In this document: positions 37,936 to 54,075 of the stretch, one piece after another
How positions within the stretch are numbered: the stretch's first letter is position 1
Layout of the letters: the number at the start of each line of letters is the position of its first letter
Origin: Pseudomonas baltica
GTDB lineage: Bacteria; Pseudomonadota; Gammaproteobacteria; Pseudomonadales; Pseudomonadaceae
Assembly: GCF_031880315.1 (NCBI RefSeq)
Contig: NZ_CP134771.1
Coordinates: 4,770,501-4,834,500 of the forward strand
DNA: 64,000 nt
Direction of reading: 5' to 3'
The notes under the pieces: model-generated
What the model was told of the DNA's origin: nothing
What the model saw: only the letters and a program-made list of their open reading frames with translations
Database searches by the model: none
Translations under genes and position numbers: made by a program

Positions 37936-40476
37936 ATGGCGAATTCATTCAATGTCAAAGACTTCGGCGCCGTGGGCGACGGGCACAGTGACGACACCCT
38001 GGCGTTGCAAGCTGCGATCGACGCCGCATCGGCCGCAGGGGGCGGAACGGTGGTGATCCCCAGCGGCACCTATATCGTCAGCGCCCAGGCCTCCGGCAAC
38101 GCGCTGATACTCAAGGACAACGTTCTGCTCGAAGGCGACACCACTGATCGGCCGACGCTGAAACTGGCAAACGGTTCCAGCGCTGATATCGACGGCATCC
38201 TGCGCGCTGATGGTAATGCGGTCGGCGTCAGCAGTCTGGTTATCGACGGCAACCGCGCGCATACCACGGGCGTGGTCAGCGATTTATCGCTGGGCGACGG
38301 CGCGCAACTGACGCTGAATTACGTCCAGGCCACCAACGCGTCCGGCTACGGCCTCGATCTACGCGCTGAGGGCGGTCAGGTCCAGTCCGACAAGGCCTAC
38401 GTGGATTACAACGGGCAGGGCGGCGTGATCACGGCGGGGCTGGTCGGCAGTGCGCTCGATGACCTGATCGTCACGGACAACGATGGCAACGGTCTCACCA
38501 CTCAAGGTGCGGTGAGGGTGCAAGACATCACCAGCACCAGTAATCAGGGCTATGGCGTCGCCGTTGTGGGTGACGCTGATGGCCATGCGGCGCAGTTGAT
38601 CAGTGGATCGATCACCAGCAACCGCACCAGTGGAGTATTGATCGACAAGGCCAGCGACGCGGTGGTCGATCACCTGTCCATCTCGTACAACCGCCTGTTG
38701 GCCATCGAGGTACGCGATTCCCAGGGTACCCAGATCAGCACCAATCATATCGATGGCAGCTACCTGGACGCCAACCACTCCTACGTGCTTGTGCAAGACA
38801 GCACCGGCACCGAAGTGCGTGGCAACGTGATTGGCGCAACGGGCTATTATGACGGCGCGAGGTCTACCTACGGCGTCGAGGAGCGCGGCCAGAGCAACGA
38901 CAACCGTATTGGTGACAACTTCATCGGCAACGCCACCGAGGGCGACGTCAAGGTGGTCGGCGCCACGACCGCAGTGTTCGATAACACCGACGCGTTGACC
39001 ACCTACGGCTCCACGGGTGACGACGTGATCTCCGAATATGCCCGGGCTTACAACACTGTGTTGTATGGCGGTGCTGGTGACGACGTGATAATGGGTGGGG
39101 ACCTCGACAATGAGTTGATCGGCGGTGCCGGCGTGGACCAGCTCGTGGGTGCGCAGCGCCACGATACCTTCCGATTCACCCAGCTGACCGACAGCTATCG
39201 CACTGCAAGCGCGAGCTTTGCCGATACCATCAGCGCGTTCGATGTCAGCAAGGACAGCATCGATGTCACCAGCCTGGGGCTTAGCGGCCTGGGCAATGGC
39301 CACAACGGCACGTTGGACCTGACCTACAACGCCGACAAGGACCTTACCTACCTCAAGAGCTATGACGCCGACGCTCAAGGCCAGCGCTTCGAGCTGATCC
39401 TCAAAGGCGACTACCGCACCAGCCTGACCGCGGATAATTTCCTCCCGCTCACCAACGGCACATCCGGCGACGACAGCCTGCAAGGCACCACTCACGGCCG
39501 TGACACTCTGGTAGGCGGCGATGGCCGCGACGTGCTTTCGGGCCGCGGCGACGATGATCGCCTGGACGGCGGTGGCGGTGCCGATCGGCTGATCGGCGGT
39601 CAGGGCGCGGATACCTTCGTCTATAACCACCTGACCGACAGCCAGGTCGATGCCGCCGGGAAGGATCAGGGCCGCGACCTGATCGTCGACTTCAACAGTG
39701 CCGACCACGACCAGATCGACGTCTCTGCCTTGGGGTTCACCGGTTTCGGCGATGGTTACGGCACCACACTGAGCCTGACCTACGACAGCGCCAACGACAT
39801 CACTCGCCTCAGCTCAAAAGAGCTGGACAGCGCCGGCAATCGTTTCCAGGTCGCCCTGAACGGCGACCATGTGCTTGACCTGGGCGCCAACGCTGTCGAG
39901 TTCGCCCGGGCTGACAGCCCGCAAGAAACCAGCACCTATCCGGGGCAGATCTTGACCACCGGCACGGCGGCGAGCGACAGGCTCATCGGCTCGGCAGACG
40001 CGGACCGTCTCTATGGGCTGGACGGTGACGATGTGCTGCAGGGGGGCGCCAATAGCGATTTCCTGCTCGGTGGCCATGGCGCTGACAAACTTACCGGCGG
40101 CAGCGGTAGTGATTACTTCGTGTTCCAGAGCGTCGAGGACAGCTACCGCACCGCTGACCAGAGCCATACCGACCTGATCACCGATTTCAATCAGGGCTAC
40201 GACAGCCTCTCCGTCAGCGCACTGGGCTACACCGATATCGGCGATGGCTTCAACGGCACCTTGAAGATCGACTACAACGCCGCCCTTGACCGCACCTATG
40301 TCCGCGACCTGCAGGGCGACGACCAGGGGCGGTTTTTCCAGATCGCCCTGAGCGGCGATCAGACCCAGAACCTGCGGTACAACAACATGGGCTTCGCGGA
40401 TCGCGATGTGTCGGCGGATGTCGCGCCGATCGAGGTGGTGGGTGTGGCTACTCATGCCGATCATGCTGTTGGGTGA
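37936..40476 (+). CDS. AlgE-like mannuronan C5-epimerase, catalytic residues lost
   Basis: 846 residues; AAAGGA precedes the ATG and there is no signal peptide, as for AlgE-type proteins exported by type I secretion. Residues 1-355 form a parallel beta-helix A-module (FNVKDFGAVGDGHSDDTLAL). Three R-modules follow (about 365-500, 510-660, 675-830), each with RTX nonapeptides (GGAGDDVIMGG, GGRGDD-like) and a DTFRF-type tail. By manual alignment to AlgE4, Tyr149 is kept (Y138), but the DPHE box reads DLRA (His154 to R143), Asp178 becomes A167 and Arg195 becomes G184. Epimerase activity is therefore doubtful; an alginate-binding or structural role is possible. No secretion genes are adjacent. Confidence 0.85.
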   Translation: MANSFNVKDFGAVGDGHSDDTLALQAAIDAASAAGGGTVVIPSGTYIVSAQASGNALILKDNVLLEGDTTDRPTLKLANGSSADIDGILRADGNAVGVSSLVIDGNRAHTTGVVSDLSLGDGAQLTLNYVQATNASGYGLDLRAEGGQVQSDKAYVDYNGQGGVITAGLVGSALDDLIVTDNDGNGLTTQGAVRVQDITSTSNQGYGVAVVGDADGHAAQLISGSITSNRTSGVLIDKASDAVVDHLSISYNRLLAIEVRDSQGTQISTNHIDGSYLDANHSYVLVQDSTGTEVRGNVIGATGYYDGARSTYGVEERGQSNDNRIGDNFIGNATEGDVKVVGATTAVFDNTDALTTYGSTGDDVISEYARAYNTVLYGGAGDDVIMGGDLDNELIGGAGVDQLVGAQRHDTFRFTQLTDSYRTASASFADTISAFDVSKDSIDVTSLGLSGLGNGHNGTLDLTYNADKDLTYLKSYDADAQGQRFELILKGDYRTSLTADNFLPLTNGTSGDDSLQGTTHGRDTLVGGDGRDVLSGRGDDDRLDGGGGADRLIGGQGADTFVYNHLTDSQVDAAGKDQGRDLIVDFNSADHDQIDVSALGFTGFGDGYGTTLSLTYDSANDITRLSSKELDSAGNRFQVALNGDHVLDLGANAVEFARADSPQETSTYPGQILTTGTAASDRLIGSADADRLYGLDGDDVLQGGANSDFLLGGHGADKLTGGSGSDYFVFQSVEDSYRTADQSHTDLITDFNQGYDSLSVSALGYTDIGDGFNGTLKIDYNAALDRTYVRDLQGDDQGRFFQIALSGDQTQNLRYNNMGFADRDVSADVAPIEVVGVATHADHAVG

Positions 40477-40485
40477 TCAAGGCAC

Positions 40486-40513
40486 AACCCCGCTCACTCA
40501 ATGATGCGGGGTT
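40486..40513. terminator. Possible terminator after the epimerase-like gene
   Basis: AACCCCGC (40486-40493) pairs with GCGGGGTT (40506-40513) around a 12-base loop. There is no T-run, so the function is uncertain. Confidence 0.4.
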
Positions 40514-40633
40514 CACTGGTCACGACTGCACACTTTCTCGGCATTACCACCCTCTAATCCCCTCAAGCTTTCCCACCCCCGGCCGTTAAATGTACAGGAC
40601 CCGATACATTCATATAGAGAATGGACAAATCTC

Positions 40634-42217
40634 ATGACGGCCATTACATCTGCCAGCCTGCCCCTGACGACCAGCCTCACCGCCATCACGCCGATCACCA
40701 GTGTGCCGGCGGCCACGACCCTGATCTCCACCACGGCGACCACAGCCGCGGATTCACCCGCGGCGGTGGTATCCCTGGGCAACGCCATCACCACGGCAGT
40801 GGACCTGTACTCCTCCCGGGGCACGCTGGCTGATGCGCCGCCCGCTCTGATGTGGGAAAACACCACGCAGAACAAGGTCACCAGCACCATTGCCGGCAAC
40901 CTGAACTCGCAGGACGCATCGACGCGCTTCAAGGGCCTCGGCGCGGCACTGTTGACGCAGTTCGCCAACAGCGGTAGCGGTTTTTCGCAGTCGGTGCTGC
41001 AGCCGACCGGTAATGCCACGCCTTCTGCTTCGGCGCTGACCGCCCTGCAGTCCAACCTGCATGCCAATGCCGAAAACGCCGTGAGCCTGACCATCAAGAC
41101 CGCCAGCGGCGCCACGGTGACGCTGAGCCTGAGCAGCAGCGACACGGGCCTGGGGGCGCAGGTCAGCGTGACGGGTGGCAAGCTCAACGACAGTGAACTG
41201 GCGGCCGTGAGCAAGCTGGCAGATGGTTTTCAGAGCGCCATCGATGGCCTGGGGGCCAAGCCGCCCAAGCTGAATCTGGACGGGCTGACCCAGTTCGACA
41301 AGAGTGCGCTGACCTCCGTGGACTTCACGGCCAAGCTGGCGGGCGGTGATATCCAGACGCTGAGTTTTTCGGCCGACGCCAATAAACGCAGCGTCAGCAT
41401 GACCGGTGTGGTGGGCGATCTCAACTTGAGCGTCGACACCCGCAACACCGCGATTCTGGGCAACGCCGCGCAGCAAGCCAAGGCGTTGCAGACCTACCTG
41501 ACGAAGTTCGATTCAGCCCGTGCCCGCGGTCACGGCGACGAAGAGTTGATGGGCATGTTCAAGGACGCGTTCACCACCTTCAATACCAATGTCGGTAGCG
41601 CGGCGGCTACCACGAGCGGGGCGGTGTTGAACGATACCGACCATGCGATGTTGACCGGCCTTGCGGATTTCAGCGCGTCCATCAGCCAGCACGCGCAGTC
41701 GGTCAACCCGATGCGCACCAACGAGGTGGACACCTTCGCCTACACCGTGTCGCAGTCGACCCAGGCCAAGGGCGCGCAGGCCAATCGCAGCATCGATCAG
41801 CAGCAGCAGTCGCAGCTCAGTGCCAGCTATCACCAGGCGCTATACCCGGGCACCAGCTTGAACCTGACCCTGGACAAAGACTCGCAGAACTACACCTATT
41901 TCAAGATTGCCGACAGCGCCAGCAGCTCGTCGAGCATCGCCTACAGCAAGAACGCAATCATTTCGGCGGCACTGTCGCAGTCGTCCACGCAGTCCAAGAC
42001 CGCGCTTACCTATGTGCTCGGGCAGTTGCAGTCGACCGTCACCACACCCAAGCAGGTGGCGCAGGCGAGCAGTGTCAAGGACTTGCTGGAGGATGCCCTC
42101 AAGCAGGACAAAGCCTCGGGCTTTGGTGGCAGTGGCAATGGCCCGGCATACAAGGCCGCCATCAACGGCATTCACGAGCGCGTGCTGGGTGCGTTGGACA
42201 TCGCTACGTCAAATTGA
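40634..42217 (+). CDS. Ser/Thr/Ala-rich hypothetical protein
   Basis: 527 residues, low complexity at the start (Thr/Ala-rich first 50), no clear signal peptide or membrane helix. The body alternates amphipathic beta-like segments (VSLTIKTASGATVTLSLSSS, LTSVDFTAKLAGGDIQTLSF) and helices near the end (LTYVLGQLQSTVTTPKQVAQ). The composition (few Cys, many Ser/Thr/Asn/Gly) is that of secreted or surface proteins; being next to an RTX-type protein fits. I recognise no domain. Confidence 0.65.
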   Translation: MTAITSASLPLTTSLTAITPITSVPAATTLISTTATTAADSPAAVVSLGNAITTAVDLYSSRGTLADAPPALMWENTTQNKVTSTIAGNLNSQDASTRFKGLGAALLTQFANSGSGFSQSVLQPTGNATPSASALTALQSNLHANAENAVSLTIKTASGATVTLSLSSSDTGLGAQVSVTGGKLNDSELAAVSKLADGFQSAIDGLGAKPPKLNLDGLTQFDKSALTSVDFTAKLAGGDIQTLSFSADANKRSVSMTGVVGDLNLSVDTRNTAILGNAAQQAKALQTYLTKFDSARARGHGDEELMGMFKDAFTTFNTNVGSAAATTSGAVLNDTDHAMLTGLADFSASISQHAQSVNPMRTNEVDTFAYTVSQSTQAKGAQANRSIDQQQQSQLSASYHQALYPGTSLNLTLDKDSQNYTYFKIADSASSSSSIAYSKNAIISAALSQSSTQSKTALTYVLGQLQSTVTTPKQVAQASSVKDLLEDALKQDKASGFGGSGNGPAYKAAINGIHERVLGALDIATSN

Positions 42218-42225
42218 CAGCGTAT

Positions 42226-42250
42226 GCGCCGGGGCACAGGGCCCCGGTGC
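42226..42250. terminator. Stem-loop between convergent genes
   Basis: GCGCCGGGGC and GGCCCCGGTGC form a very stable stem with an ACA loop exactly between the convergent stops at 42217 and 42257. No T-tract, so at most a weak bidirectional terminator. Confidence 0.5.
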
Positions 42251-42256
42251 GGCGTG

Positions 42257-42961
42257 TCAAGCCAGGGTGCAACCGGCGAACGCGGTCTGTTCCTGAATCG
42301 CGGTGGCAATGCTCTTGCGCGTGGCCACATGTTCGACGCCATGGCTGTCGGTAAACACCGCAGGCACGAGCACTTCTTTCTCTTCTTCGTCCATTTCGAT
42401 GCTGAAACCCAGCAGCGCGAACGCTTCGCCATCCTGGCTGAGATTGGCTGCCGGGCGCCCGACGCGGATCGGGAACGGCAGGCTGACCTCACCGTTGCTG
42501 AGGGTGAAGACTTCCATCTCTTTTTTCGGGCGCGAGGCCTTGGCCTTGCCGCCGGGCTCTTTCATGGCCAGGTGGGTGTGGTTGAGCACCTTCAGGGCCA
42601 GGCCGTAGATGATGTTCTCGAACGCCGGATCGTTACGGAAATTGTGCAGGATCTGCGAAATCGAGAAACGGCTGCTCAGGTCTTCCAGGGCCGTGGCGTT
42701 GGCTTGCTCGATGTCCTTGATCTGCTTGAGTTCGCCCATCAGCTCATGGGCGCGATCGTCGTCGGTATCGTCCATCGCCTTGCGGATGGCGGCCCGCAGT
42801 TCACGGATCTTCTCGCTTTCGCCACTGGTATTGAAGGCATCGAGCACCATCTCGCTGATGTTCTTGGCCTGTGGCAGATGCTCGGAGCGATTGATCGCGT
42901 GTTCGTATTCGTCTTTGGGCGCCAGGGCGTGTGCAGCGGTCTCGGTGTTCGTGCTTTGCAT
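42257..42961 (-). CDS. Hypothetical protein, charged helical with C-terminal beta domain
   Basis: 234 residues from ATG 42961 (MQSTNTETAAHALAPKDEYE); the frame is open 54 codons further upstream without coding character. Residues 30-110 are charged and helical, probably coiled coil (IRELRAAIRKAMDDTDDDRA, HELMGELKQIKDIEQA). A basic hinge (KAKASRPKKE) leads to a C-terminal domain (GEVSLPFPIRVGRP, LLGFSIEMDEEEKEVLVP). Cytoplasmic by composition. No family recognised. Confidence 0.65.
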   Translation of the reverse strand: MQSTNTETAAHALAPKDEYEHAINRSEHLPQAKNISEMVLDAFNTSGESEKIRELRAAIRKAMDDTDDDRAHELMGELKQIKDIEQANATALEDLSSRFSISQILHNFRNDPAFENIIYGLALKVLNHTHLAMKEPGGKAKASRPKKEMEVFTLSNGEVSLPFPIRVGRPAANLSQDGEAFALLGFSIEMDEEEKEVLVPAVFTDSHGVEHVATRKSIATAIQEQTAFAGCTLA

Positions 42962-43179
42962 TGTCGATCCATGTATCGGGTGAAGGGCGTGCAAGGTCGC
43001 GATGCCGGGTCGCGACGGTGCCGGGCAGGCATTAAATTCGCTTCTGGCCAGGAGTGCAATGGTGGCGGTGGTCGCAGGGCACTGGCCGAGACCAGTGGGC
43101 ACCGCCCATCCATTGCGCTGCACTTTGTGCCGCCTTTGCCACTCACAACTTCATGAACCCATGATCGAGTGAGGATTGT

Positions 43180-43608
43180 ATGGCTACGCACAAGCAAGAA
43201 CATCGCCCGGTAGACGACGTATCCCAGGACCTCAACGAGGTACCACCCGAAGGCATCGAGCCGGACCTGACCCCCGCGCCGGGCACTCAGCGCGGGATTC
43301 CCGATGCCGAGCCGGCCCGTACTCAGCACGAGGCTCCAGCCTCGGCTACAAGCCCGGCGCCTGGCTTTAGCCAAAGCCAAGGCCAAGGCCAAGGCCAAGG
43401 CGAGAGTCAGACACAGAGCCAGAGCCAGAGCCCCGGCCAGACCCAAAGCCAGACGCAGAAAGATCTAGGTTTTGACCCGGATTCGCCGGATGTGGCCGAT
43501 CCCCAGGTCGATCCGGTCGGGCCCGCACAGATTCCTGATGATGCCCCCGGCATGCAAGTGAAGAAGCGCGTCAATGACGATGAATACCCGCCTTATAACA
43601 AGCCGTAA
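43180..43608 (+). CDS. Hydrophilic disordered protein with Gln/Ser repeats
   Basis: 142 residues, almost entirely polar: Pro/Glu-rich start (VDDVSQDLNEVPPEGIEPDL), a central run of SQ/GQ/TQ dipeptides (about residues 62-94) encoded by hexamer-like repeats, and an acidic end (NDDEYPPYNKP). Predicted disordered and probably stress-related by composition, similar to small hydrophilic orphan proteins of Pseudomonas. It is divergent from the gene at 42257 across 218 bases. Confidence 0.6.
   Translation: MATHKQEHRPVDDVSQDLNEVPPEGIEPDLTPAPGTQRGIPDAEPARTQHEAPASATSPAPGFSQSQGQGQGQGESQTQSQSQSPGQTQSQTQKDLGFDPDSPDVADPQVDPVGPAQIPDDAPGMQVKKRVNDDEYPPYNKP
43369..43458 (+). repeat. Imperfect hexamer repeats inside the disordered protein
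   Basis: GCCAAG/GCCAAA/GCCAGA units repeat over about 90 bases, including four near-identical GCCAAG units in a row from about 43377. Likely length-variable between strains by slippage, in steps that keep the frame. Confidence 0.75.
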
Positions 43609-43822
43609 GCGGCCGTCATTGTTACAAGATCAAGTCCCGACGACCCTTGTTTGTGTCTTGGCGATAACCGGTATATGCCACGCAGCCCACGAAAACCGCT
43701 GCCTGGCGCCGCGAGCCGCAGCCCAGACGCCTGGCGATGCCGGCCCAGGGCTGTACACGGACGCAGCCTGTTCTACACTCAGGCTGAAAACAACAAGAGT
43801 CCCAACCATAAGGGAAATCGTC

Positions 43823-44035
43823 ATGATCGATTACAAGACCGAAAACCGTTGCTTGCTGTCCACCATCGCATCCGGGGAGATGCAGATCACCGGCAGGACT
43901 TCTCAGACTGTCACCGCGCTTATCCTGGCGGGTTTTCTGGCGGACCAGAAGACCTGCGAACCTGATGGCATGATGATGCATCGCGTCAGCCTGACGCCGG
44001 CAGGGCACCGATTACTGGAGGGTTTGTGGTACTGA
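43823..44035 (+). CDS. Small winged-helix-like hypothetical protein
   Basis: 70 residues; AAGGGAA lies eight bases before the ATG. Pattern: helix (TENRCLLSTIASGEMQIT), recognition-like helix (SQTVTALILAGFLADQK) and a strand-loop ending VSLTPAGHRLLEGLWY, as in minimal winged helices. Similar in plan to the fragment at 31120. Regulatory function is a guess. Confidence 0.6.
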   Translation: MIDYKTENRCLLSTIASGEMQITGRTSQTVTALILAGFLADQKTCEPDGMMMHRVSLTPAGHRLLEGLWY

Positions 44036-44065
44036 AGCGTTTGATGATTTTGCGCTGACTGTACC

Positions 44066-44154
44066 GGCCTCTTCGCGGGCAAGCCTTGCTCCCACGGTGT
44101 TTAATGTTTCATCTTCATCCACCAGTGGTAGCAAGGCTTGCTCGCGAAGAGGCC
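44066..44154. repeat. REP pair
   Basis: The left arm at 44066-44095 (GGCCTCTTCGCGGGCAAGCC start) and right arm at 44125-44154 match with three mismatches around a 29-base centre, the same spacing as the pair at 14332. Confidence 0.9.
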
Positions 44155-44211
44155 CAAAACATCACCTCGTTGACTGCGGTTATACTCGTGTTTTTTCTCC
44201 GCAGGCTGCCC

Positions 44212-44829
44212 ATGACCGACCCCCATCGCCTTCCCGTTCCCCTCGCCAAAGCCTATCGATTGCTCAACCATGGCCCGACCGTACTGGTCAGCGCTGCCCA
44301 TGACGGCGCGCGCAATATCATGGCGGCCGCCTGGTCGGTGCCCATCGATTTCGACCCGCCCAAGGTCGCGGTGGTGCTCGACAAGTCGACCTGGACCCGC
44401 AAGCTGCTGGAAGCCTCGGGCACCTTTGTGCTGCAGGTACCGGTGGTGACCCAGGCCAATCTGGTCGAAACCGTCGGCTCGGTGTCCGGCTTGGCGCTGG
44501 ATGAAGCCGGCGATGGCGACAAGTTCGAGCGCTACGGTCTGCAGACATTTGCCGGCGCGGTGATCGATGCGCCGTTGCTGGAAGGCTGCGTGGCCTGGCT
44601 CGAATGCCGACTGATCCCTGAGCCGCACAATCAGGAGACCTACGACCTGTTCCTCGGCGAAGTCGTCGCCGCCCATGCCGATTCGCGGGTGTTCAAGGAG
44701 GGCCACTGGGACTTTACCGGCCACGATGAGCTGCGCACCCTGCACCATATCGCCGGTGGGCATTTCCTGGTGATTGGCGAGGCGGTGCAGGGCAGTGAGC
44801 AGCCGCCGTTGCCTCCCAGCGGAGCCTGA
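44212..44829 (+). CDS. Flavin reductase family protein
   Basis: 205 residues from ATG 44212. A split-barrel flavin-binding domain: GPTVLVSAAHDGARNIMAAA, then WSVPIDFDPPKVAVVLDKST with the flavin-contacting loop, and a YDLFLGEVVAAHADSRVF strand. The family uses FMN with NAD(P)H to supply reduced flavin or acts as an orphan FMN protein. It is not linked to the rut genes 6 kb away and differs from RutF. Confidence 0.82.
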   Translation: MTDPHRLPVPLAKAYRLLNHGPTVLVSAAHDGARNIMAAAWSVPIDFDPPKVAVVLDKSTWTRKLLEASGTFVLQVPVVTQANLVETVGSVSGLALDEAGDGDKFERYGLQTFAGAVIDAPLLEGCVAWLECRLIPEPHNQETYDLFLGEVVAAHADSRVFKEGHWDFTGHDELRTLHHIAGGHFLVIGEAVQGSEQPPLPPSGA

Positions 44830-44948
44830 ACGGGCCGGACGGTACAGAGAATTTTGTAACCAAGGCTGTCCAATACCGCATGTTGGAGGCCTCAGCGCTA
44901 TGCTCCGCGACGTCAAACGGAATTAATCATCACTACAGGCCGCTTTTC

Positions 44949-45140
44949 ATGTCTACCCATTCTTTCTTCGATCGCGAGGTTGTAGAGCGCGCGGCAAAAA
45001 AAATGATGGAACACAAAAATGGCTCGAGTGCGCCGGGTTTGTCCCTCGAGCTTAAAGTCGCTATTGGCTGGAAGGAAAAAACAGAGGAGCAAATCCAGGC
45101 AGCATTCCGCGAAGCGGTGCTAAAGCTGCGTCGTGGCTGA
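44949..45140 (+). CDS. Small hypothetical protein
   Basis: 63 residues (MSTHSFFDREVVERAAKKMM), charged and helical, ending in AAFREAVLKLRRG. The low-GC first half (AAAAAAAATGATG near 44997) contrasts with the surroundings. It overlaps the next ORF by eight bases, so the two may be a coupled pair of foreign origin. Function unknown. Confidence 0.5.
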   Translation: MSTHSFFDREVVERAAKKMMEHKNGSSAPGLSLELKVAIGWKEKTEEQIQAAFREAVLKLRRG

Positions 45141-45276
45141 TTCGGTACCGGATTTCTCGAACGGCGAGGGCGATTACAATTTCATCTACACCAAGTTGAT
45201 GGACAACGAGAACGACGTTATCGGTGTCGTCGCCTATTCAGTCTCAGCTGGCAGCGAGATCACCGAAGCAGGCTGA
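45133..45276 (+). CDS. Short ORF, probably truncated
   Basis: 47 residues from GTG 45133: VADSVPDFSNGEGDYNFIYT, then KLMDNENDVIGVVAYSVSAG. The segment NFIYTKLM...DVIGVVAYS resembles the N-terminus of longer membrane-associated proteins in which a KQxKIEF-like helix follows; here the frame ends soon after, suggesting truncation or a frameshift. Low confidence. Confidence 0.35.
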   Translation: MADSVPDFSNGEGDYNFIYTKLMDNENDVIGVVAYSVSAGSEITEAG

Positions 45277-45297
45277 TCTCTCATCCCCGCTCGATAT

Positions 45298-46875
45298 TCA
45301 CCACTCAAACGCCGGCCGCCGCACCATCTGCGCGGCCCGTTCGATGTCGGGTGCAAGCCAGCGATCCTCGTCATAGGCCGGCACCTCGTTGCGTAACAGT
45401 CGCCAGGCCCGGTCGGTTCCCGTCCCCAAACGCTGCGGCTGAAGAAACTCGAACGCCTGCGCCGCCAGCAAATACTCGATGGCCAGCACCTGAGTGGTGT
45501 TGTCGATGACCTTGAGCAGCTTCAGCGTGGCACCGGTGCCCAGGCTCAAGTGGTCTTCCTGCAGGGCCGAGGTGACGAAGTTGTCGACCACCGCCGGCTG
45601 TGCCAAATGGCGATTTTCCCCGACCAGCGCGGCCGCCACATACTGGGTGATCATCATCCCCGAATTGACCCCCGGCTGGCTCACCAGAAACGCCGGCAGG
45701 CCACTGACCAACGGGTTGATCAGCCGATCCAGACGGCGCTCGGCCACGCCTGCCAACTCCGCGACCGCAATGCACATCAGGTCCGCCGCCATGGCCAGCG
45801 ATTCGCCGTGGGGATTGGCCTGGGACAGCACGCGATACGCCTCTGGAGTACCGACCACCAGCGGATTGTCGGTGACCGAGGCCAGTTCGGCATCGATCTG
45901 CCGCTCGGCGTGTTTGAACTGATCACGGCATGCGCCATGAATCTGAGGGATGGAGCGAATGCTCATGGCGTCTTGGGTGCGAATCCCGCGGCTGTTGGCG
46001 ATGACTTCGCTGCCCGCCAGCAGGGTGCGCAGGTTTTGGCCGACGGTCTGCACGCCGGGATGCACCTTGAGCGACAGCACGGCCTCGTCGAAGGCGTCGA
46101 TCTGCCCGCGCAGAGCCTCGAAGCTCATGGCGCCGATGATATCCGCCCATTGCGCCAGGTTGCTGGCATCGGCCAATGCCAGGCTGGCCAGGCCGGTCAT
46201 GCAGGGCGTGCCGTTGACCAGGCTGAGGCCGTCCTTGGCTTGCAGTTCGACCACCGCGAGGCCCGTCTGATCCAGCGCCTGGGCGGCGCTCATCAGCAGG
46301 CCGCCGTGGGACACCTGGCCGATGCCGAGCAGGGCGATGCCGATATGGGCCATATGGGTGAGGTAGCCGACCGAGCCCTGGGACGGCACGCAGGGGGTGA
46401 TGTCGTGGTTGAGCAGGTCCAGCAGACGTTGCACCACCGCCGGGCTGATGCCAGAGCGGCCGTGAGCATAGTTGTTGATGGCGGCGCAGATGATCGCGCG
46501 GGTCTGCTCGACTTTCAGCACCGGGCCGACCCCGCAGGCGTGGCTGAGCAGGGTGTTGCGCGACAGTTTGGCCAACTGCGGGCCTTGCAAGGCGATATCG
46601 CTGAGGGCGCCCAGGCCGGTGCTGATGCCGTAGGCACGCTCGCCGCGCTCGACGATATGGTCGACGATGGCGCGGGCATTGGCGATCTGCGCCCACACGC
46701 TGTCGGCCAGTTCCAGCCGCGCGCCGTGCCGCGCCACGGCCACGACCTGGCGCCAATCAAGAGGCTGATCGCCGCGGTGCACCGGCGGGCAATGCGCGCT
46801 GTTGGCAGCCGGACGCGCGGAAGTGGGGTCCTGGAGGGTCACGTTAGGATCCGTAGCAAGGGGAACCGCGCTCAT
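45298..46875 (-). CDS. Histidine ammonia-lyase homologue lacking the MIO triad
   Basis: 525 residues, full HAL/PAL length. It keeps YGISTGLG (catalytic Tyr), [18 protein letters not shown] (Asn), the Arg of QDAMSIR and QEDHLSLG (Glu). But the Ala-Ser-Gly that cyclises to MIO is missing: where HutH has GSVG-ASG-DLAPLAHM, this protein reads GSVG (167-170) directly followed by YLTHMAHIG (171-179), a clean three-residue gap. The Tyr of QDPYSLR is Met. Normal deamination by MIO is not possible; the activity is unknown. Last gene of an amino-acid ABC transporter operon with a HutC-like operator; it overlaps the ATPase gene by four bases. Not a decayed gene: the frame and most motifs are intact. Confidence 0.88.
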
Positions 46876-47663
46876 TCGGCGTTCCTCTGTTGATGGCTGG
46901 AAACGAACTGGCGAAAGCGCTCGGTGGGCAGGCCTTCGAACAATTCTGCCGGGCTGCCTTGGGCATCGATCACGCCGTTGGCCATGAACACCACGCGGTT
47001 GGAAACGTGGCGAGCGAAGCCCATCTCATGGGTGACCACCAGCATGGTGCGGCCTTCTTCGGCCAGCGAGCGCATGACCCGCAGCACCTCGCCGACCAGT
47101 TCCGGGTCGAGGGCCGAGGTGGGCTCATCGAACAGCATTACCTGCGGGTTCATGGCCAGCGCCCGGGCAATGGCCACGCGCTGCTGCTGGCCGCCGGAAA
47201 GGTGCGCCGGGTAATAGTCGCGGCGGTCGAACAGCCCGACCTTGTGCAACAGTTGCTCGGCTTCTTCACGGCACTCGGCCGCCGAACGCTTGAGCACCCG
47301 CAGCGGGCCTTCCATGACGTTCTGCAGCACGGTCATGTGCGACCACAGGTTGAAGCTCTGGAACACCATGCCCAACTGGCTGCGCATGCGCTCGACCTGG
47401 CGCTTGTTGCCGGGCACTTGGCGGCCGTCGCGCTGGCGTTTCATTTCGATCAATTCGCCGTCGAGGCTGATGCTGCCTTCGTCCGGGGTTTCGAGCAGAT
47501 TGATACAGCGCAGGAAGGTACTCTTGCCCGAGCCGCTGGCGCCCAGGATCGACACCACGTCACCCTTGTGCGCTTCCAGCGAGATGCCCTTGAGCACCTG
47601 CACCTGGCCAAAGGATTTTTGCAGGTTGGCGACCGACAATGCGGCCGATGAAGGCGTATTCAT
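46872..47663 (-). CDS. Polar amino-acid ABC transporter ATPase
   Basis: 263 residues from ATG 47663 ([20 protein letters not shown]). Walker [11 protein letters not shown]-loop [11 protein letters not shown], signature LSGGQQQR, Walker [13 protein letters not shown], switch His VVTHEMGFA. It matches the HisP/GlnQ class. It lies 17 bases behind the permease gene and overlaps the lyase start, so transporter and lyase are translationally linked. Confidence 0.93.
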
Positions 47664-47679
47664 GAGGGCTCCAGGTGAT

Positions 47680-48423
47680 TTATTCGGGGGAGGGGCTGGC
47701 GGTTTCGGTGGCGAGCGCGGCGCTCGGGCCATGCGGGCGCTCGCGCAGATGCGGCGTCAGGCGATGCTCGAGCCAGCCAATGGCCCGCACGATCAGGAAA
47801 TTGAGCAGCAGGTAGATCACCGCCGCGCAGGCGAATACTTCCATGGTCCGGTAGGTGCGCTGGATGATTTGCTGGGCCACGCCAGTCACATCCCACACCG
47901 TTACCAGACTCGCCAATGCGGTGGACTTGACCAGCAACACGGCCTCGGTGGAATACGCCGGCAGGGCCTGGCGCAGTGTCACCGGGGCGATGATCCGGCG
48001 CAGCAGCGTCCAGCGCGACATGCCGATGGCCAGCCCTGCTTCGATCTGGCCGTGAGGTACGCTAAGCAGGCCGCCGCGGATGATCTCAGCGGTGTAGCCG
48101 GCGGTGCACAGCGCCAGCGACACCACTGCACAGCCATAGGGCGAGCGCAGCACCACCCAGGCGAAACTGTCACGGATGGCCGGGAACTGCCCCAGGCCGT
48201 AGTAGATGAGGAACATCTGGATCAGCAGCGGCGTGCCGCGAAACAGCATGATGTAGAAGCGTGCCGGGTAACTGAGCAGCGGCCAGCGGCTGACCCGCAG
48301 GCTGACGATACCCAGCGACAAGGTCAGGCCCAGCGCCAGCGAAGTGAAGAACAACGTCAGCGTGGTCGGCAATGCCGCCAGCAGCTTGAGCATGGTGTCG
48401 GCAAGAAAGGTGAAATCGATCAT
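47680..48423 (-). CDS. Amino-acid ABC transporter permease (HisM/ArtM-like)
   Basis: 247 residues, five membrane helices, with the EAA-type loop [20 protein letters not shown]. The start [20 protein letters not shown] and [20 protein letters not shown] are typical of the His/Glu/Arg/opine permease family. It pairs with the next gene upstream to form the heterodimeric channel. Confidence 0.92.
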
Positions 48424-48438
48424 GGCAGGCGTCCGCAG

Positions 48439-49155
48439 TCAGGGGATCTGGCGACGCTGGGTGCGTCGTACGCGGGCTTCGGCAAAGCCGAACAGCCGAC
48501 CCGAAAGGCCCGTCAGGATCAGGTAGAGCACCGCCCCGACGATGTAAAAGGTGAAGTACTGGCGCGTCGAACCGGCAGCCACCTGGCTGGCGCGCATCAG
48601 CTCCACCAGGCCGATCACCGAAATCAGCGCCGAGTCCTTGAGGCTCATCTGCAGCACATTGCCCAGGCCCGGTAATGCGTAGCGCATGACCTGCGGCACC
48701 AGCACCCGGCGAAAGCGCATCGCCGTGCTCATGCCGATCGCCAAGGCAGCCTCCAGCTCGCCCTTGGCCACTGCCAGATACGCACCGCGAAACACTTCGG
48801 CCTGGTATGACCCGGAGATCAGCCCCACCGCCAGGGCGCCGACCAGGAACGGCGGCACATTGATATAGCCTTCGCCGCCAAACCAATGCCCCACCGCCGA
48901 CACCACGCTGGCGCCGCCAAAATAGAACAGATAGATCACCAGCAACTCGGGAATGCCGCGGAACAGGATCGAATACAGGTCGCCCAGCCAGCGCAGGCTG
49001 CGCCGCCGTGACAGCTTGGCGGCAGCCACGAGGCTGCCGAACACCGCGCCGACCAGCAGCGCGGCGAACGTCAGCAGGATGGTCATGCCGGCGGCCTTGA
49101 GCAGGGCCATGCCCCAACCGGTATCACCGAAGCTGAGCAGTTGCAGGATATTCAT
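48439..49155 (-). CDS. Amino-acid ABC transporter permease (HisQ/ArtQ-like)
   Basis: 238 residues, five membrane helices; LYSILFRGIPELLVIYLFYF and the EAA loop EVFRGAYLAVAKGELEAALA, continuing AIGMSTAMRFRRVLVPQVMR. The GIPELLV wording is close to histidine/octopine permeases. It is second in the operon, 95 bases after the binding-protein gene. Confidence 0.92.
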   Translation of the reverse strand: MNILQLLSFGDTGWGMALLKAAGMTILLTFAALLVGAVFGSLVAAAKLSRRRSLRWLGDLYSILFRGIPELLVIYLFYFGGASVVSAVGHWFGGEGYINVPPFLVGALAVGLISGSYQAEVFRGAYLAVAKGELEAALAIGMSTAMRFRRVLVPQVMRYALPGLGNVLQMSLKDSALISVIGLVELMRASQVAAGSTRQYFTFYIVGAVLYLILTGLSGRLFGFAEARVRRTQRRQIP

Positions 49156-49250
49156 CAGGGTTGCCTCTCAGGGCGCTGGCTATGCACCCAAACGTGGGCG
49201 AGCCGAGGAACTGCCTCGCCAGCACACGGCTGGCGAGGCGCCAGGGCGAC

Positions 49251-50114
49251 TCAGGACTTGGGTGTCAGGTCGACCTTGAACCACTTCTCGCTGAGCTTCT
49301 TCACCGTCCCGTCGGCCAGGGCGTCCTTGAGGGCCGCGTCGAACCGAGCCTTGAGGTCGGCGTCCTGCTTGCGAAAGCCCAGGGCTTCGCCGTCGCCGAA
49401 GATCGGCCCTTTGATTTCCGGACCGGTGTAGGCCAGGCCTTTGTTCTCGTCCTTGGCCATCAGCGAGTTGAGGAAGGTCACGTCGTCGAACACCACGTCG
49501 ATACGACCGGCTTGCAAGTCGAGCACCGCCTCGGCGGACGAACCGTATTCGCGCACGGTGGCGATGTCCTTGAACTGCTCGTCGATAAACGGCGTGTAGA
49601 CGGTGCCCGAAGCGATGCCGATGGTCTTGCCTTTGAGCGCTGCCTTGACGCTGGCCATCGCAGCGCTGGTCTTGGCACTGTCGGTACCCAGGGTCAGGGC
49701 GGCGGCCTCGCCCGGTGTGCCGGGGAGAGCCTTGGCATCGAGGGCAACGAAGCTGGCCGGGGTGCTGGCGTAGGGGATGGAGAAGTCCATCACCTGCTTG
49801 CGCTCGTCAGTGATGACAATGGCGTCCATCAGCACATCGAACTTGCCGGCGTTGAGGCTGGCGATCATGCCGTCCCAGTTCTGCACCGCGATGTTGCATT
49901 TGAGCTTCATGCGCTGGCAGAGAATATCCATCAATTCCGGCTCGAAGCCGCTGATCTTGCCACCGGGCAGGGTCAGGTTCCACGGCTCGTAGGAGCCTTC
50001 GGTGGCGATGTTGACGCTGGTCCAGTCCTTGGCCTGCGCCATCGGCAGGAACGCCATCAGCGCGGCGCCCAGGGTAGCTGCTGTAAACCAACCGGTTTTG
50101 CTGGAATGTGTCAT
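49251..50114 (-). CDS. Periplasmic amino-acid-binding protein of the ABC transporter
   Basis: 287 residues. Signal peptide ends at PMAQAKD near residue 29. SBP_bac_3 features: IATEGSYEPWNLTLPGGKIS, FEPELMDILCQRMKLKC, DVLMDAIVITDERKQVMDFS and IGIASGTVYTPFIDEQF. Closest in pattern to lysine/arginine/ornithine, histidine and octopine binding proteins. First gene of the operon; the ligand is unknown but the HutC-type control suggests histidine, urocanate or a related imidazole. Confidence 0.9.
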   Translation of the reverse strand: MTHSSKTGWFTAATLGAALMAFLPMAQAKDWTSVNIATEGSYEPWNLTLPGGKISGFEPELMDILCQRMKLKCNIAVQNWDGMIASLNAGKFDVLMDAIVITDERKQVMDFSIPYASTPASFVALDAKALPGTPGEAAALTLGTDSAKTSAAMASVKAALKGKTIGIASGTVYTPFIDEQFKDIATVREYGSSAEAVLDLQAGRIDVVFDDVTFLNSLMAKDENKGLAYTGPEIKGPIFGDGEALGFRKQDADLKARFDAALKDALADGTVKKLSEKWFKVDLTPKS

Positions 50115-50167
50115 GTGTCCCGCCCTGATTATTGGTCTGGTTGTAGGGGATGACTGAGTCCCCTATG

Positions 50168-50181
50168 CTTGTACATACAAG
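50168..50181. promoter_or_regulatory. HutC-type operator of the transporter-lyase operon
   Basis: CTTGTACATACAAG is a perfect TGTA-N2-TACA palindrome, the recognition pattern described for HutC, the urocanate-responsive GntR repressor of Pseudomonas hut genes. It covers the expected transcription start of the sigma-54 promoter at 50186-50201, a position that would block initiation. Confidence 0.72.
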
Positions 50182-50185
50182 TACT

Positions 50186-50201
50186 AGCAATTAAAAGGCC
50201 A
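50186..50201 (-). promoter_or_regulatory. Sigma-54 promoter of the transporter-lyase operon
   Basis: Minus strand TGGCCTTTTAATTGCT: GG and GC separated by exactly 10 bases, with a perfect TTGCT at -12. The start point would fall near 50175, 60 bases before the binding-protein ATG. The rest of the 304-base gap to rutF (50115-50418) holds no gene; one TGTTAC half-site at 50329-50334 might serve a CbrB-type activator. Confidence 0.65.
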
Positions 50202-50418
50202 GAATCGCCCGGGCGTTGGACAAACTCCTAACTCGTTGTTTCACATTGTTTTGCCGCGCTGCGAGGCCTTGCCTGCGCAATGCTGAAGCTGCGCGCGTGT
50301 GCACTTTCGGAGCGGCTTTATGACCAAGTGTTACCTGCTGGTGCGCTAAGCCGGTGCTAGGTCGGCGCTACTTCGACGCAGAGTTGCCGCCGAGTCGGCG
50401 CCCAATCCGCGTCGGTCC

Positions 50419-50943
50419 TCAAACCGGCCGGGCAGTCACCCCATGGTACTGGCGATCGAAATACACCAGTCCCGCAGCCTCGCCCTGACGTTCCAGCGCC
50501 ACCACCTCGCAGAACAGGATGTCGTGGGTGCCCACGCTTACCGTCTTGCTGACGCGGCAATCGAACGACGCTGCCGCACCCTCCAGCACTGGCGCCCCGG
50601 TTACCCAGGTGTGCCACTGCGCGGCGGCGAAACGCTCGGTCATGTCCGTCTTGCCGCCGAACAGATTGGACAGCTCGTGTTGACCGTGGGCCAAGGTATT
50701 CACACACAGCGTAGCGTTGGCGCTGAACGCCGCATGCACCGAGGCCGAGCGGTTCAGGCACACCAGCAAGGTAGGCGGATCGTCGGTGACGCTGCACACC
50801 GCCGTGGCGGTAAAGCCCGCGCGTCCGCCAGGGCCATCGCTGGTGATGACATTGACCGCTGCTGCCAGGCCGGCCATGGCGTGACGAAAATCGTCGCGGG
50901 TTACGACTTCCTGAATAAACGGCGTTGATTCTGACGCTTGCAT
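50419..50943 (-). CDS. rutF: Pyrimidine-utilisation flavin reductase RutF
   Basis: 174 residues from ATG 50943. A split-barrel flavin reductase: [20 protein letters not shown], then [20 protein letters not shown], and the end of the fold [20 protein letters not shown]. It regenerates FMNH2 for the RutA monooxygenase with NADH. It is last in the rut operon here, 13 bases after rutD; rutE and rutG are absent. Confidence 0.92.
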
Positions 50944-50956
50944 GACAAGGCTCCCC

Positions 50957-51736
50957 TCACGCCTGACGCGTGAGATAGTCCAGTAGAACGCGATTGAAAG
51001 TGGCTGGATCGCTGACGCTGGAGGCATGGCCGCCGTATTCGAGCAGTGCCAGTTCACCGTTAGGCAAAGCATCCGCCAGATGCTGGGAGCGCTGCCATGG
51101 CACGAGCATGTCGTCGCGGTTGGCAATCAGCAGGGTCGGGGTCTGAATGGTGCTCAAGTGCGCTTCGACATCGAAGCCCTGCAACGCGGCAATGCGCTTG
51201 AGCAAATTCTGTGGCTCGGGGAAGTGCGCCAGGGCATGGGCATCGTCCTCGGCCAATTGCGCGCTGTTGGCGGCGATCCAGTCGGCGGGATACAAAAACA
51301 GCGCCTGGGCCTGCACATAGGCCGCCGGGCCGCTGTCGCGCAGCAGGTTCTTGCGCACCGCAAAGCAGCGTGCACTGTGCGGATTGGGGCTGCTCCAGGC
51401 GTTGATCAGCACCTGGCTTTGCAGCAACTGTGGGCGCTGCAGGGCCAGCTCCAGGCCGACCAGTCCACCCAACGCGTGACCGATGAAATGGCAGCGCTGC
51501 ACTTCGATGCCATCGAGCAGCGTCAGCAGTTCGCGGGCCATATCGGCGATCGAATAATCATCCGCCAATGTTGCCGGGCTGCGGCCGCTGCCGGCCTGAT
51601 CGTAGACCACCACGCGATAGTGATCGGTCAGCACAGGCAGTTGCGGGCCCCAGAAACGTGCCGAGCCACCCAGGCCCGAGCTGAGCACCAGGGTCGGCGC
51701 AGCGGCGTCTTGGCGACCGAGAATTTCGTGATACAT
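50957..51736 (-). CDS. rutD: RutD, alpha/beta-fold aminoacrylate/carbamate-pathway protein
   Basis: 259 residues with an alpha/beta-hydrolase fold. The nucleophile elbow reads [11 protein letters not shown], Ala instead of Ser; as I recall, E. coli RutD also has GHALG, so this is a family trait, not a local defect. Other marks: [43 protein letters not shown] and the final His EYGGHASSV. It is thought to speed carbamate or aminoacrylate breakdown in the uracil pathway. Confidence 0.92.
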
Positions 51737-51787
51737 GCAAGGCTCCAGTGCGGGCCCTCAGGGCCCGTCCAGGTGGAAGAGGGCGCT

Positions 51788-52177
51788 TTAGCCGATATGG
51801 GCAATGCTGGCGATTTCGATCAGCGCCTCGGGTTTGACCAGGCCGCATTGGATGCAGTAGCGCGCGGGCTTTTCGCCGGCGAAGTACTCGGCGTACACCG
51901 CGTTGATCTTCGGATAGTCGGCCCAGTCGCGGAGCATGATCATGTTGAAGGTGACGTCGTCCATCGTGCCGCCGGCGGTCTCGATTACCCCTTTGATGGT
52001 CTCCAGCACGTGGCGGGTCTGGCCGGTGGCATCGCCTACATGCACCACGTTGTTGTCCTTGTCGAAGGGCAGGGTGCCAGACACGTACAGAATGCCGTCG
52101 GCCATGGAACCCGGCACGAACGGGGCGATGGGAACGCCGGTGCCGGCAGGGATGATTGCTTTCTTGCTCATGGTCAC
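51788..52177 (-). CDS. rutC: RutC, Rid-family aminoacrylate deaminase
   Basis: 129 residues of the YjgF/RidA fold: [20 protein letters not shown], then [34 protein letters not shown] and the Arg-containing [10 protein letters not shown]. It deaminates 3-aminoacrylate in uracil degradation. It is 12 bases after rutB. Confidence 0.95.
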
Positions 52178-52189
52178 ACTCCTTGATGA

Positions 52190-52918
52190 TCAGTCTTGAG
52201 GGGTAAAGGTGGCGCAGAAGTCATCGACGCTGGCGACCCAGCCGAAGAAGGTCTCGATGTTGAACAGCGCGGCCTGTTGAGCAAATGCCGGGCCAGCCTG
52301 GTGGGTGGCATCGGCGAGCACCACGCCGAAGTACTCGAGGAAAAACCCATCGCGCAGGGTCGATTCCACGCACACGTTGGTGGCGATGCCGGTGAACACC
52401 AGATTGCGAATGCCGCGGCTGCGCATCAGGCTGTCGAAGTTGGTGTTGAAAAAGCCGCTGTAGCGGGTCTTGGGCACCACCATGTCGCCGGGCTGCGGCT
52501 TGAGCTCGTCCACCAACTCATAGTCCCAGCCGCCCTTGGCCAGTAACGTGCCGTGAAGCTCAGGGCGCGAGCGCATGGTTTTCAGCGCGTTGGACTTGTG
52601 CCAGTTGGGCGAGCCGGGGCCGCCGGCCTCGACGTATTCCGGGTCCCAGCCGTTCTGGAAGAACACCACCGGCATGCCGGCAGCGCGAGCGGTGGTCAGG
52701 GCTTTCTGGATATTGGCGATCACTGGGCCCGTGGTGCTGACGTCGAAACCGGCCAGGTCCAGATAGCCACCCAGGCTGGAATAGGCATTCTGCATGTCGA
52801 CCACCACCAGCGCGGTTTCGCTGGCCTTCAGGCTCAGGGCCTCCGGGCGGGCGGGCAGGGTGCGGGAGGGCTGGCTGTCCTGGGGCAGGCTGTAACCGGA
52901 AACGGGGGCGTTCATCAT
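52190..52918 (-). CDS. rutB: RutB, ureidoacrylate amidohydrolase
   Basis: 242 residues of the isochorismatase-like hydrolase family, with the catalytic triad visible as Asp in [10 protein letters not shown], Lys in [11 protein letters not shown] and Cys in [11 protein letters not shown]. It cleaves the ureidoacrylate made by RutA. The start overlaps the rutA stop by four bases (ATGA). Confidence 0.95.
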
Positions 52919-53997
52919 GCGGACTCCTGCAAGGTATTGATGTGTTGGCGCGAGTGCATCAGGGGCTGGATCTTGCTGCCGAAGTCCTCGACGCCCTTGA
53001 TGAAGTCGTCGAACACCAGCATCACGCCCTGGGTGCCGGGCACCGTGGCGACCTCATCGAGCATGCGTGCCACCGAGGCCCATGAGCCCACCAGGGTGCC
53101 CATGTTGATGTTCACCGCTGAGGTCGGGTCGGCCATCTGGCGCATGTTCGACCCCGGGCTCTGATCGGCGGCGCCTTTCTCGCCGAGCCAGGCGATGGCT
53201 TCCTGATCGGCACCGGCCTTGATGAATTCCCAGCGCTCGCGGGCGGCGTCATCGGTGTCGTCGGCGATGATCATGAACAACGCGCAGGCGGTGACGTTAC
53301 GCCCGGTCCTGGCATTGGCTTCGACCAGCTTGGCAGCGGTCGGGGCGAAGGCGGTGGGGGTGTTGACGCCCTTGCCGAAGCAGAAGTTGTAGTCCGCGTA
53401 CTGCGACGAGAAGGCCATGCCGGTTTCGCTCTGGCCAGCGCAGATGATCTTCATGTCGGCCTGGGGCTGCGGGCTGACGCGGCAGTCGTCCATGGTGAAG
53501 TACTTGCCCTTCAGGTTGCTGTGCCCGGTGGTCCACAGGTCGCGCAGCACCTGAGTGTATTCGGCGAGGTAGTCATAGCGCGTCGAGAAGAACTCGTCGC
53601 CGGGCCACAGGCCCATCTGCTCGTACTCGGGCTTTTGCCAGCCGGTCACCAGGTTGACGCCGAAGCGGCCGTTGGAGATGGAGTCGATGGTCGCCGCCAT
53701 GCGCGCGACGATCGCCGGCGGCAGGGTCAGGGTGGCGGCGGTGGCGAACAACTGGATGCGGCTGGTGACCGCTGCCAGGCCGGCCATCAGGGTGAAGGAT
53801 TCAAGGTTGTGCTCCCAGAACCCGGTCTTGCCCCCAAAGCCGCGCAACTTGATCATCGACAGGGCGAATTCAAAGCCGTAGTGCTCGGCCTTTTGCACGA
53901 TCTGCTTGTTGAGTTCGAAACTGGGCATGTATTGCGGTGCGTTTTCCGAGATCAGCCAACCGTTGTTGCCGATCGGGATGAAAATGCCAATGTCCAT
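52915..53997 (-). CDS. rutA: RutA, pyrimidine monooxygenase
   Basis: 360 residues from ATG 53997 ([20 protein letters not shown]), the family's normal start; the frame is open 26 codons earlier. A luciferase-like FMN monooxygenase that opens the uracil or thymine ring between N3 and C4. Marks: [58 protein letters not shown]. It is first in rutABCDF and driven by the sigma-54/NtrC/RutR region upstream. Confidence 0.96.
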
Positions 53998-54075
53998 GTG
54001 CGTGGCCTCTTTGATACGGTGCTTCGTTCGAGTTAAGGCGCCTCTGGTGCAGCAGGCGATTGACGAGAGACACAA

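What the first reader, a model, noticed from the sequence alone, without database searches (positions are those of the whole stretch)
45298..46875. HutH homologue with the MIO triad cleanly deleted, in a HutC-type transporter operon
Seen: between GSVG (167-170) and YLTHMAHIG the three residues Ala-Ser-Gly present in every MIO ammonia-lyase are missing, while flanks, length, active-site Tyr (YGISTG), Asn (VNGT), Arg and Glu (QEDH) remain; the Tyr of QDPYSLR is Met. Known: MIO is required for HAL/PAL/TAL chemistry. Inference: the protein has a new activity or acts as a binding or regulatory protein for an imidazole or amino-acid ligand imported by the co-transcribed ABC system.
Basis: partly seen in the sequence, partly recalled or inferred. 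Interest (0 to 1): 0.85.

Follow-up and report, generated by a model that had tools for sequence, protein, structure and literature searches.

The report
Histidase relative that lost its cofactor
A protein filed as a histidine-degrading enzyme has lost the built-in chemical group such enzymes need; it belongs to a widespread, well-preserved bacterial family that sits next to nutrient importers and probably strips trimethylamine from a methylated histidine instead.

Summary
Confirmed. The 525-aa ORF at 45298-46875(-) is a PF00221 lyase in which GSVG is followed directly by Tyr, so the Ala-Ser-Gly triad that forms MIO is missing. It is no private defect. The deletion defines a clade (GS[VA]GY, here HutH') found in 53 of 80 fetched loci and 23 of 398 same-phylum genomes. 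It is separate from MIO histidases and ergothionase, and under purifying selection (dN/dS 0.07-0.17). It includes Pseudomonas hutH1 and Sinorhizobium hutH2. The imidazole/carboxylate half of the histidase site is kept (Y53, H83, N195, R283, E414; 44 of 44). The amine half is rebuilt: no MIO, Y280 to Leu/Met (ergothionase: Leu), F329 to Pro/Ala. In 83 of 89 loci an importer lies directly upstream: glycine-betaine-type HutXW (53), BCCT (7) or opine-type ABC (23, the window's type). Hut genes are within 9 kb in 78 of 89. A canonical HutH coexists in 25 of 26 genomes. Best explanation (0.5): an importer-coupled, MIO-free lyase releasing trimethylamine from hercynine (Nα-trimethylhistidine) to give urocanate. 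MIO is dispensable because the leaving group is already quaternised. A MIO-free relative (ergothionase) is known, so this is a new variant. The substrate is inferred, not shown.

The parts
45298..46875 (-). HutH' (hutH1-like): MIO-less histidine ammonia-lyase homologue, 525 aa
   Evidence: start codon overlaps the stop of the upstream ATPase gene (ATGA)
46363..46377 (-). GSVG-Y junction where the MIO triad Ala-Ser-Gly is absent (residues 167-171)
45964..45966 (-). Met304 in place of the Tyr280 of canonical HutH (Leu in 42 of 44 clade members, Met in 2)
46872..47732 (-). ABC importer ATPase (HisP/GlnQ-like); true start may be downstream of 47732
47680..48423 (-). ABC importer permease 2 (ArtM/HisM-like)
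48439..49155 (-). ABC importer permease 1 (ArtQ/HisQ-like)
49251..50114 (-). Periplasmic binding protein, family 3; closest solved structures bind octopine and nopaline

Best explanation
HutH' is a working, MIO-free lyase coupled to an importer. The importer brings in a quaternary (Nα-methylated) histidine, most likely hercynine (Nα,Nα,Nα-trimethylhistidine). HutH' holds imidazole and carboxylate as histidase does and eliminates trimethylamine to give urocanate, which enters HutU/HutI/HutG. Histidase needs MIO to make the poor leaving group ammonia leave; trimethylamine is already a quaternary, good leaving group, so the MIO triad is dispensable and the freed space (triad, Tyr280, Phe329) can take the methyl groups. 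Shown: the deletion, the clade, purifying selection, retained and lost residues, gene linkage, coexistence with canonical HutH. Inferred: the substrate, the products and catalysis itself.
For: Conserved clade of 30 thinned rows, SH-aLRT 100 in the 77-row tree. dN/dS 0.067-0.172 in four pairs. Y53, H83, N195, Q277, R283 and E414 equivalents kept in 44 of 44. MIO triad and Tyr280 vary together: Tyr in 71 of 71 ASG proteins; Leu/Met in 44 of 45 GS[VA]GY; Leu/Val/Glu in 16 of 16 other MIO-less rows, ergothionase included. Ergothionase, MIO-free, releases trimethylamine from a histidine betaine (PMC13405746, passages). Importer directly upstream in 83 of 89 loci; 60 of 89 are quaternary-amine classes, HutXW (OpuAC) 53 and BCCT 7. 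HutX keeps the three aromatic-box Trp of ProX in 53 of 53 loci (51 distinct sequences); the BCCT genes have Trp/Tyr at six of seven compared BetP cage places in 11 of 11 loci, some of them the same gene fetched twice (cage residues recalled). Hut genes within 9 kb in 78 of 89. A canonical ASG HutH coexists in 25 of 26 genomes. P. [quoted passage not shown] SolA-like N-methyl-amino-acid oxidase gene directly downstream in 5 of 89 loci; the one scored passes the N-methyl-L-tryptophan oxidase cut-off.
Against: The window's own importer is not of a quaternary-amine class. Its binding protein is opine/LAO type and keeps the Asp that in LAO/HisJ contacts a free α-ammonium (23 of 23 loci, 20 distinct; role recalled). 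The HutX and BCCT representatives fall well under the NCBIfam cut-offs of the named betaine transporters (79.8 and 110.8 of 215; 335 of 650), and the closest solved structure to the BCCT is a trimethylamine transporter, so it may move trimethylamine rather than hercynine. HutXWV is reported for histidine, proline and betaines (Boncompagni 2000, recalled), so an aromatic box does not exclude histidine; I also recall that a S. meliloti hutH2 mutant grew about 30% less on histidine. In genome G315 the hut cluster has HutH' and a second MIO-less lyase but the genome shows no canonical HutH, which could mean that HutH' handles histidine. Aureimonas L159 has only HutH' inside its plasmid hut operon, chromosome not seen. 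The clade does not group with ergothionase (AU p 0.02), so shared chemistry would be convergent.
Confidence: 0.5

Rival explanations
1. MIO-free lyase for another Nα-substituted histidine, such as an opine (histopine), mono- or dimethylhistidine, or another imidazole compound with a good leaving group; different importers could mean different substrates in different subclades.
For: The window-type binding protein is closest to octopine/nopaline-binding proteins; SolA-like oxidase neighbours in 5 of 89 loci; three importer classes.
Against: Secondary or tertiary amines are poor leaving groups without MIO (chemistry, general knowledge); 60 of 89 importers are of quaternary-amine classes.
Confidence: 0.18
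2. Non-catalytic: a pseudoenzyme that binds an imidazole ligand, or a partner subunit that regulates canonical HutH or the importer.
For: MIO, Tyr280 and Phe329 are lost; coexistence with canonical HutH in 25 of 26 genomes (and earlier); hutH1 is dispensable on histidine.
Against: Tyr53, Asn195, Arg283 and Glu414 equivalents invariant in 44 of 44; G315 shows no canonical HutH to partner; in several polar-ABC loci (L001, L003, L036, L041, L154, L155) no canonical HutH gene was found in the stretch held.
Confidence: 0.17
3. An ergothionase: acts on ergothioneine rather than hercynine.
Against: The ergothionase row sits in another MIO-less group; one joint clade is rejected at AU p 0.02; SSIGEGDI motif absent; no HutH' locus shows a second, diverged urocanase, and the single HutU present is 77% or more identical to the one reference used (itself from a HutH' cluster).
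Confidence: 0.08
4. A histidase that works on histidine without MIO.
For: The G315 genome and the Aureimonas plasmid hut operon L159 contain HutH' and no canonical HutH was seen (Aureimonas chromosome not seen).
Against: [quoted passage not shown] canonical HutH coexists in 25 of 26 genomes (and earlier); MIO is needed to expel ammonia (general knowledge).
Confidence: 0.05

Closest known systems
Canonical MIO histidine ammonia-lyase HutH (P. putida HAL, 1b8f; T. acidophilum, 7tqr)
   Different: No Ala-Ser-Gly, Tyr280 to Leu/Met, Phe329 to Pro/Ala, separate clade, importer-coupled, usually coexists with HutH
Ergothionase of Treponema denticola (6s7j)
   Different: SSIGEGDI instead of GSVGY, Ser at the Asn195 place in this alignment, different clade (AU p 0.02), 26% identity
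Pseudomonas fluorescens SBW25 hutH1 / Sinorhizobium meliloti hutH2 (hutXWV module)
   Same: Same clade by position and motif: Pseudomonas hut loci with HutXW and the S. meliloti pSymB locus carry GSVGY; the SBW25 gene itself was not read
   Different: There linked to HutXWV; in the window linked to an opine-type polar-amino-acid ABC system, with no hut gene among the ORFs of 38000-54000 that were assigned

Membership tests
MIO ammonia-lyase / histidase (HutH) | PF00221 fold and profile | tested here: met
MIO ammonia-lyase / histidase (HutH) | Ala-Ser-Gly triad that forms MIO | tested here: not met
   GSVG-Y
MIO ammonia-lyase / histidase (HutH) | Tyr280 (QDPYSLR) | tested here: not met
   Met304; Leu/Met in 44 of 44
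MIO ammonia-lyase / histidase (HutH) | Tyr53, Asn195, Arg283, Glu414 | tested here: met
   44 of 44
MIO ammonia-lyase / histidase (HutH) | NCBIfam hutH equivalog TIGR01225 cut-off | tested here: not met
   525.4 bits, cut-off 539.15; the broader PRK09367 subfamily is met (542.7 over 524)
MIO ammonia-lyase / histidase (HutH) | Releases ammonia from histidine | not testable with these tools
   needs enzyme assay
Ergothionase | No MIO triad | tested here: met
Ergothionase | Same clade as 6s7j | tested here: not met
   joint clade with the ergothionase group rejected at AU p 0.02, a moderate result from a quick tree; long ergothionase branch
Ergothionase | Trimethylamine release from ergothioneine | not testable with these tools
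   needs enzyme assay
hutH1/hutH2 (GS[VA]GY) clade | GS[VA]GY and Leu/Met at 280 | tested here: met
hutH1/hutH2 (GS[VA]GY) clade | Importer genes directly upstream, same strand | tested here: met
   window polar ABC; 83 of 89 other loci

The most novel reading that the evidence does not exclude
Loss of MIO is a recurrent route to amine lyases for pre-quaternised substrates: the methyl groups take over the job of the cofactor. HutH' is a hercynine trimethylamine-lyase, an unrecognised second entrance to the Hut pathway (imported hercynine to urocanate plus trimethylamine) in Pseudomonas, Halomonas and rhizobia. Separately derived MIO-less groups (ergothionase and its GxGA-xDL kin) do the same with other betaines; in G315 both kinds sit in one hut cluster, each beside a betaine-type importer gene.
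Probability: 0.4. Interest if true: 0.78.

Novelty: new variant of a known kind. Interest (0 to 1): 0.64.

Why it matters
Databases call these proteins histidine ammonia-lyase, yet they lack the group that makes one. If right, this explains why hutH1 is dispensable on histidine, why a betaine-type importer (HutXWV) sits in hut operons, and adds a new bacterial source of trimethylamine. It also shows how an enzyme family can discard its cofactor when the substrate is pre-activated. The claim is directly testable with one compound and a laboratory strain.

Tried and rejected
Private defect or base error: rejected (53 of 80 loci; dN/dS). Simple reassignment to ergothionase: rejected as a clade. 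Solved relatives: one search lists 39 PDB sequences and showed alignments for two (7tqr, 6v6h); both have a modified MIO residue at the site. The other 37 were not read for the deletion, save 6s7j. Binding-protein residues as a test for a quaternary ligand: inconclusive, and the retained Asp speaks mildly against. Link to the adjacent rut (uracil) genes: among the loci RutA was a neighbour only in L001 (in L002 the stretch held is too short to tell), so I treat it as chance. A GFP-like or alternative self-made cofactor from SVG-Y: considered, no evidence. A genus-wide PF00221 survey (115 of 119 genomes with a match) was run without loci and is not used for any count. Literature: nothing on the missing triad in HutH1/HutH2 or on a hercynine lyase was seen in the listings of searches (open-licence library only; one search listed 20 of 59 papers, 15 of 2,086, 15 of 21). 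Zhang & Rainey 2007, Maurer 2019, Zhang & Rainey 2008 and Bender 2012 are not held. Boncompagni 2000 is recalled and was not looked up. PMC3903478 was seen in the listing only.

Limits: the first context search used a motif that missed GYLSH genes; three such loci (L211, L213, L215) were added by hand. One search found 89 distinct proteins and used 86 with enough upstream sequence; the three left out are L049, L111 and L181, the last being the window's own copy. 86 plus the three added loci give the 89 used here. They include the divergent Rieske-linked paralogue L221/L127, which keeps Tyr280 and is placed elsewhere in the tree; one clade with it is not rejected (AU p 0.17). Trees are quick IQ-TREE searches on 85 and 77 thinned rows of 132; in the 85-row tree, with the longest rows in, the same clade had SH-aLRT 93. 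The AlphaFold model is a monomer made from 18 sequences (mean pLDDT 83.9; residues 431-442 under 50), while the active site of HAL is formed by several chains (recalled).

Full report
Observation. The minus-strand ORF 45298-46875 encodes 525 aa. Its DNA reads GSVG directly followed by Tyr171, where the canonical HutH of the same genome reads GSVG-ASG-DL. The protein matches PF00221 over its whole length (538.6 bits). It passes the broad NCBIfam histidase subfamily but falls short of the hutH equivalog cut-off (525.4 against 539.15). The start codon overlaps the stop of an ABC ATPase gene, and two permease genes and a binding protein gene precede it.

Not private. In a scan of one genome per species, 53 of the 80 loci kept hold a GS[VA]GY gene. 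In 398 evenly drawn same-phylum genomes, the window's own included, 25 have a match at E 1e-100 or better, and 23 of these 25 are GS[VA]GY. Of 7371 protein matches, 120 were listed; the eight that I retrieved all have GSVGY. dN/dS between the window gene and four relatives is 0.078, 0.067, 0.086 and 0.172. This is a maintained protein.

Clade. Of 132 representatives (90% clustering), 71 have ASG, 45 have GS[VA]GY and 16 have other MIO-less versions. In the 77-row tree, built without the trait's own columns, 30 GS[VA]GY rows form one clade (SH-aLRT 100); putting them together with the ergothionase group is rejected (AU p 0.02). In the 85-row tree the same clade has SH-aLRT 93. MIO was therefore probably lost more than once. 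One divergent row, L127, has the same gap but keeps Tyr280 and falls elsewhere; one clade with it is not rejected (p 0.17).

Active site. Using the P. aeruginosa PA7 HutH, whose positions reproduce the numbering Y53, H83, A142, N195, Y280, R283, F329, E414, I compared 44 clade members with 45 canonical HutH. Y53, the Ser before H83, N195, Q277, R283 and E414 are identical in all of both sets, and so is H83. Changed: A142-S143-G144 to a gap with Tyr (44 of 44); Y280 to Leu (42) or Met (2, the window included); F329 to Pro (30) or Ala (14). Tyr280 and the triad vary together: Tyr in 71 of 71 ASG proteins, not Tyr in 44 of 45 GS[VA]GY and 16 of 16 other MIO-less rows, among them ergothionase with Leu. 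So the part that holds imidazole and carboxylate is kept and the part around the amine is rebuilt (roles of residues recalled from HAL literature; Y280F, F329A/G and D145A mutants of P. putida HAL appear in PDB titles).

Context. For 89 loci with enough upstream sequence (the window's own copy not counted) an importer lies directly upstream on the same strand in 83: HutXW of the glycine-betaine class in 53, polar-amino-acid ABC in 23, BCCT in 7; 6 have none of the types sought. Hut genes lie within 9 kb in 78 of 89 (53 of 53, 16 of 23, 7 of 7, 2 of 6). BCCT and OpuAC were assigned by Pfam on one representative each; both fall under the NCBIfam cut-offs of the named betaine transporters, and the solved structure closest to the BCCT is a trimethylamine transporter. 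The three Trp that line the ProX box align with Trp in 53 of 53 HutX loci (51 distinct); of seven BetP cage places compared, six are Trp or Tyr in 11 of 11 BCCT loci (repeats of some genes included) and one is Ile (cage residues recalled). The window-type binding protein is closest to octopine- and nopaline-binding proteins and keeps the Asp that contacts the α-ammonium in LAO/HisJ in 23 of 23 loci (20 distinct), which does not favour a quaternary ligand. A SolA-like oxidase lies directly downstream in 5 of 89; the one scored passes the N-methyl-L-tryptophan oxidase cut-off (415.9 over 257). Annotated plasmid records show importer genes before the lyase, for example R. etli p42e, S. meliloti pSymB and Erwinia; Aureimonas pAU20c and two rhizobial records do not.

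Coexistence. Of 26 genomes with HutH' that were searched for PF00221, 25 also hold a canonical HutH whose ASG triad was read. The exception, G315 (same order as the window's genome, estimated 100% complete), has a hut cluster with HutH' behind a BCCT gene and a second MIO-less lyase (GSLGAADL) next to an OpuAC-type binding protein, and no canonical HutH; its one ASG protein is of the YGITTGYGD/NQDK type. Either HutH' can serve histidine there, or this hut pathway is fed by betaines; I cannot tell.

Literature. [quoted passage not shown] Passages of another paper say that ergothionase lacks MIO and releases trimethylamine from ergothioneine (PMC13405746). Passages of PMC9732360 describe an ergothioneine importer akin to OpuBC/OpuCC with an aromatic cage and very weak hercynine binding. 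I saw no paper on the missing triad of HutH1/HutH2 or on hercynine cleavage in the listings of the searches named under Tried and rejected.

Verdict. A MIO-free relative is known, so it is a new variant of a known kind, with a sharp, testable prediction.

Noticed in passing
L142-L149, L212, L255-L259: Several further MIO-less PF00221 groups (GSIGA-ADL, GSIGA-GDL, GSIGC-ADI, GTLGE-GDL), some in the ergothionase group of the tree; L144 and L212 members have an ornithine cyclodeaminase-like neighbour, and the L148/L149 members lie within about 5 kb of a diverged urocanase (51-52% to the HutU reference), possibly a thiourocanate hydratase.
   Followed up: partly
L150-L153, L179: A very divergent PF00221 group with GQGGA-GEI and no recognisable MIO site (family matches broken around profile positions 140-174).
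   Followed up: no
L212 (G315:C26:51000-68000): One hut cluster holds two different MIO-less lyases, each beside a betaine-type importer gene, in a genome where no canonical HutH was found.
   Followed up: partly
L127/L221 (G062): A GSVGYLGPEGH paralogue that keeps Tyr280, behind an opine-type ABC importer and a Rieske (VanA_C) oxygenase with its reductase.
   Followed up: partly
L003:3761-4546: HalD-like 2OG-Fe(II) oxygenase gene directly upstream of the importer genes of the P. fluorescens HK44 HutH' operon.
   Followed up: no
window 50419-54075: A rutABCDF pyrimidine-degradation cluster lies upstream of the importer operon on the same strand; among the context loci RutA was found as a neighbour only in L001.
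   Followed up: partly
PMC12772324 (passages) and L031: The paper labels PA5093 as hutG; in the P. aeruginosa PA7 locus (L031) the order is HutX, HutW, ATPase, MIO-less HutH', HutI, HutG, so PA5093 may be the HutH' gene (PAO1 numbering recalled).
   Followed up: no
PMC3410850 (passage): hutH2 is listed among putative targets of selection in Sinorhizobium meliloti/medicae population genomics.
   Followed up: no
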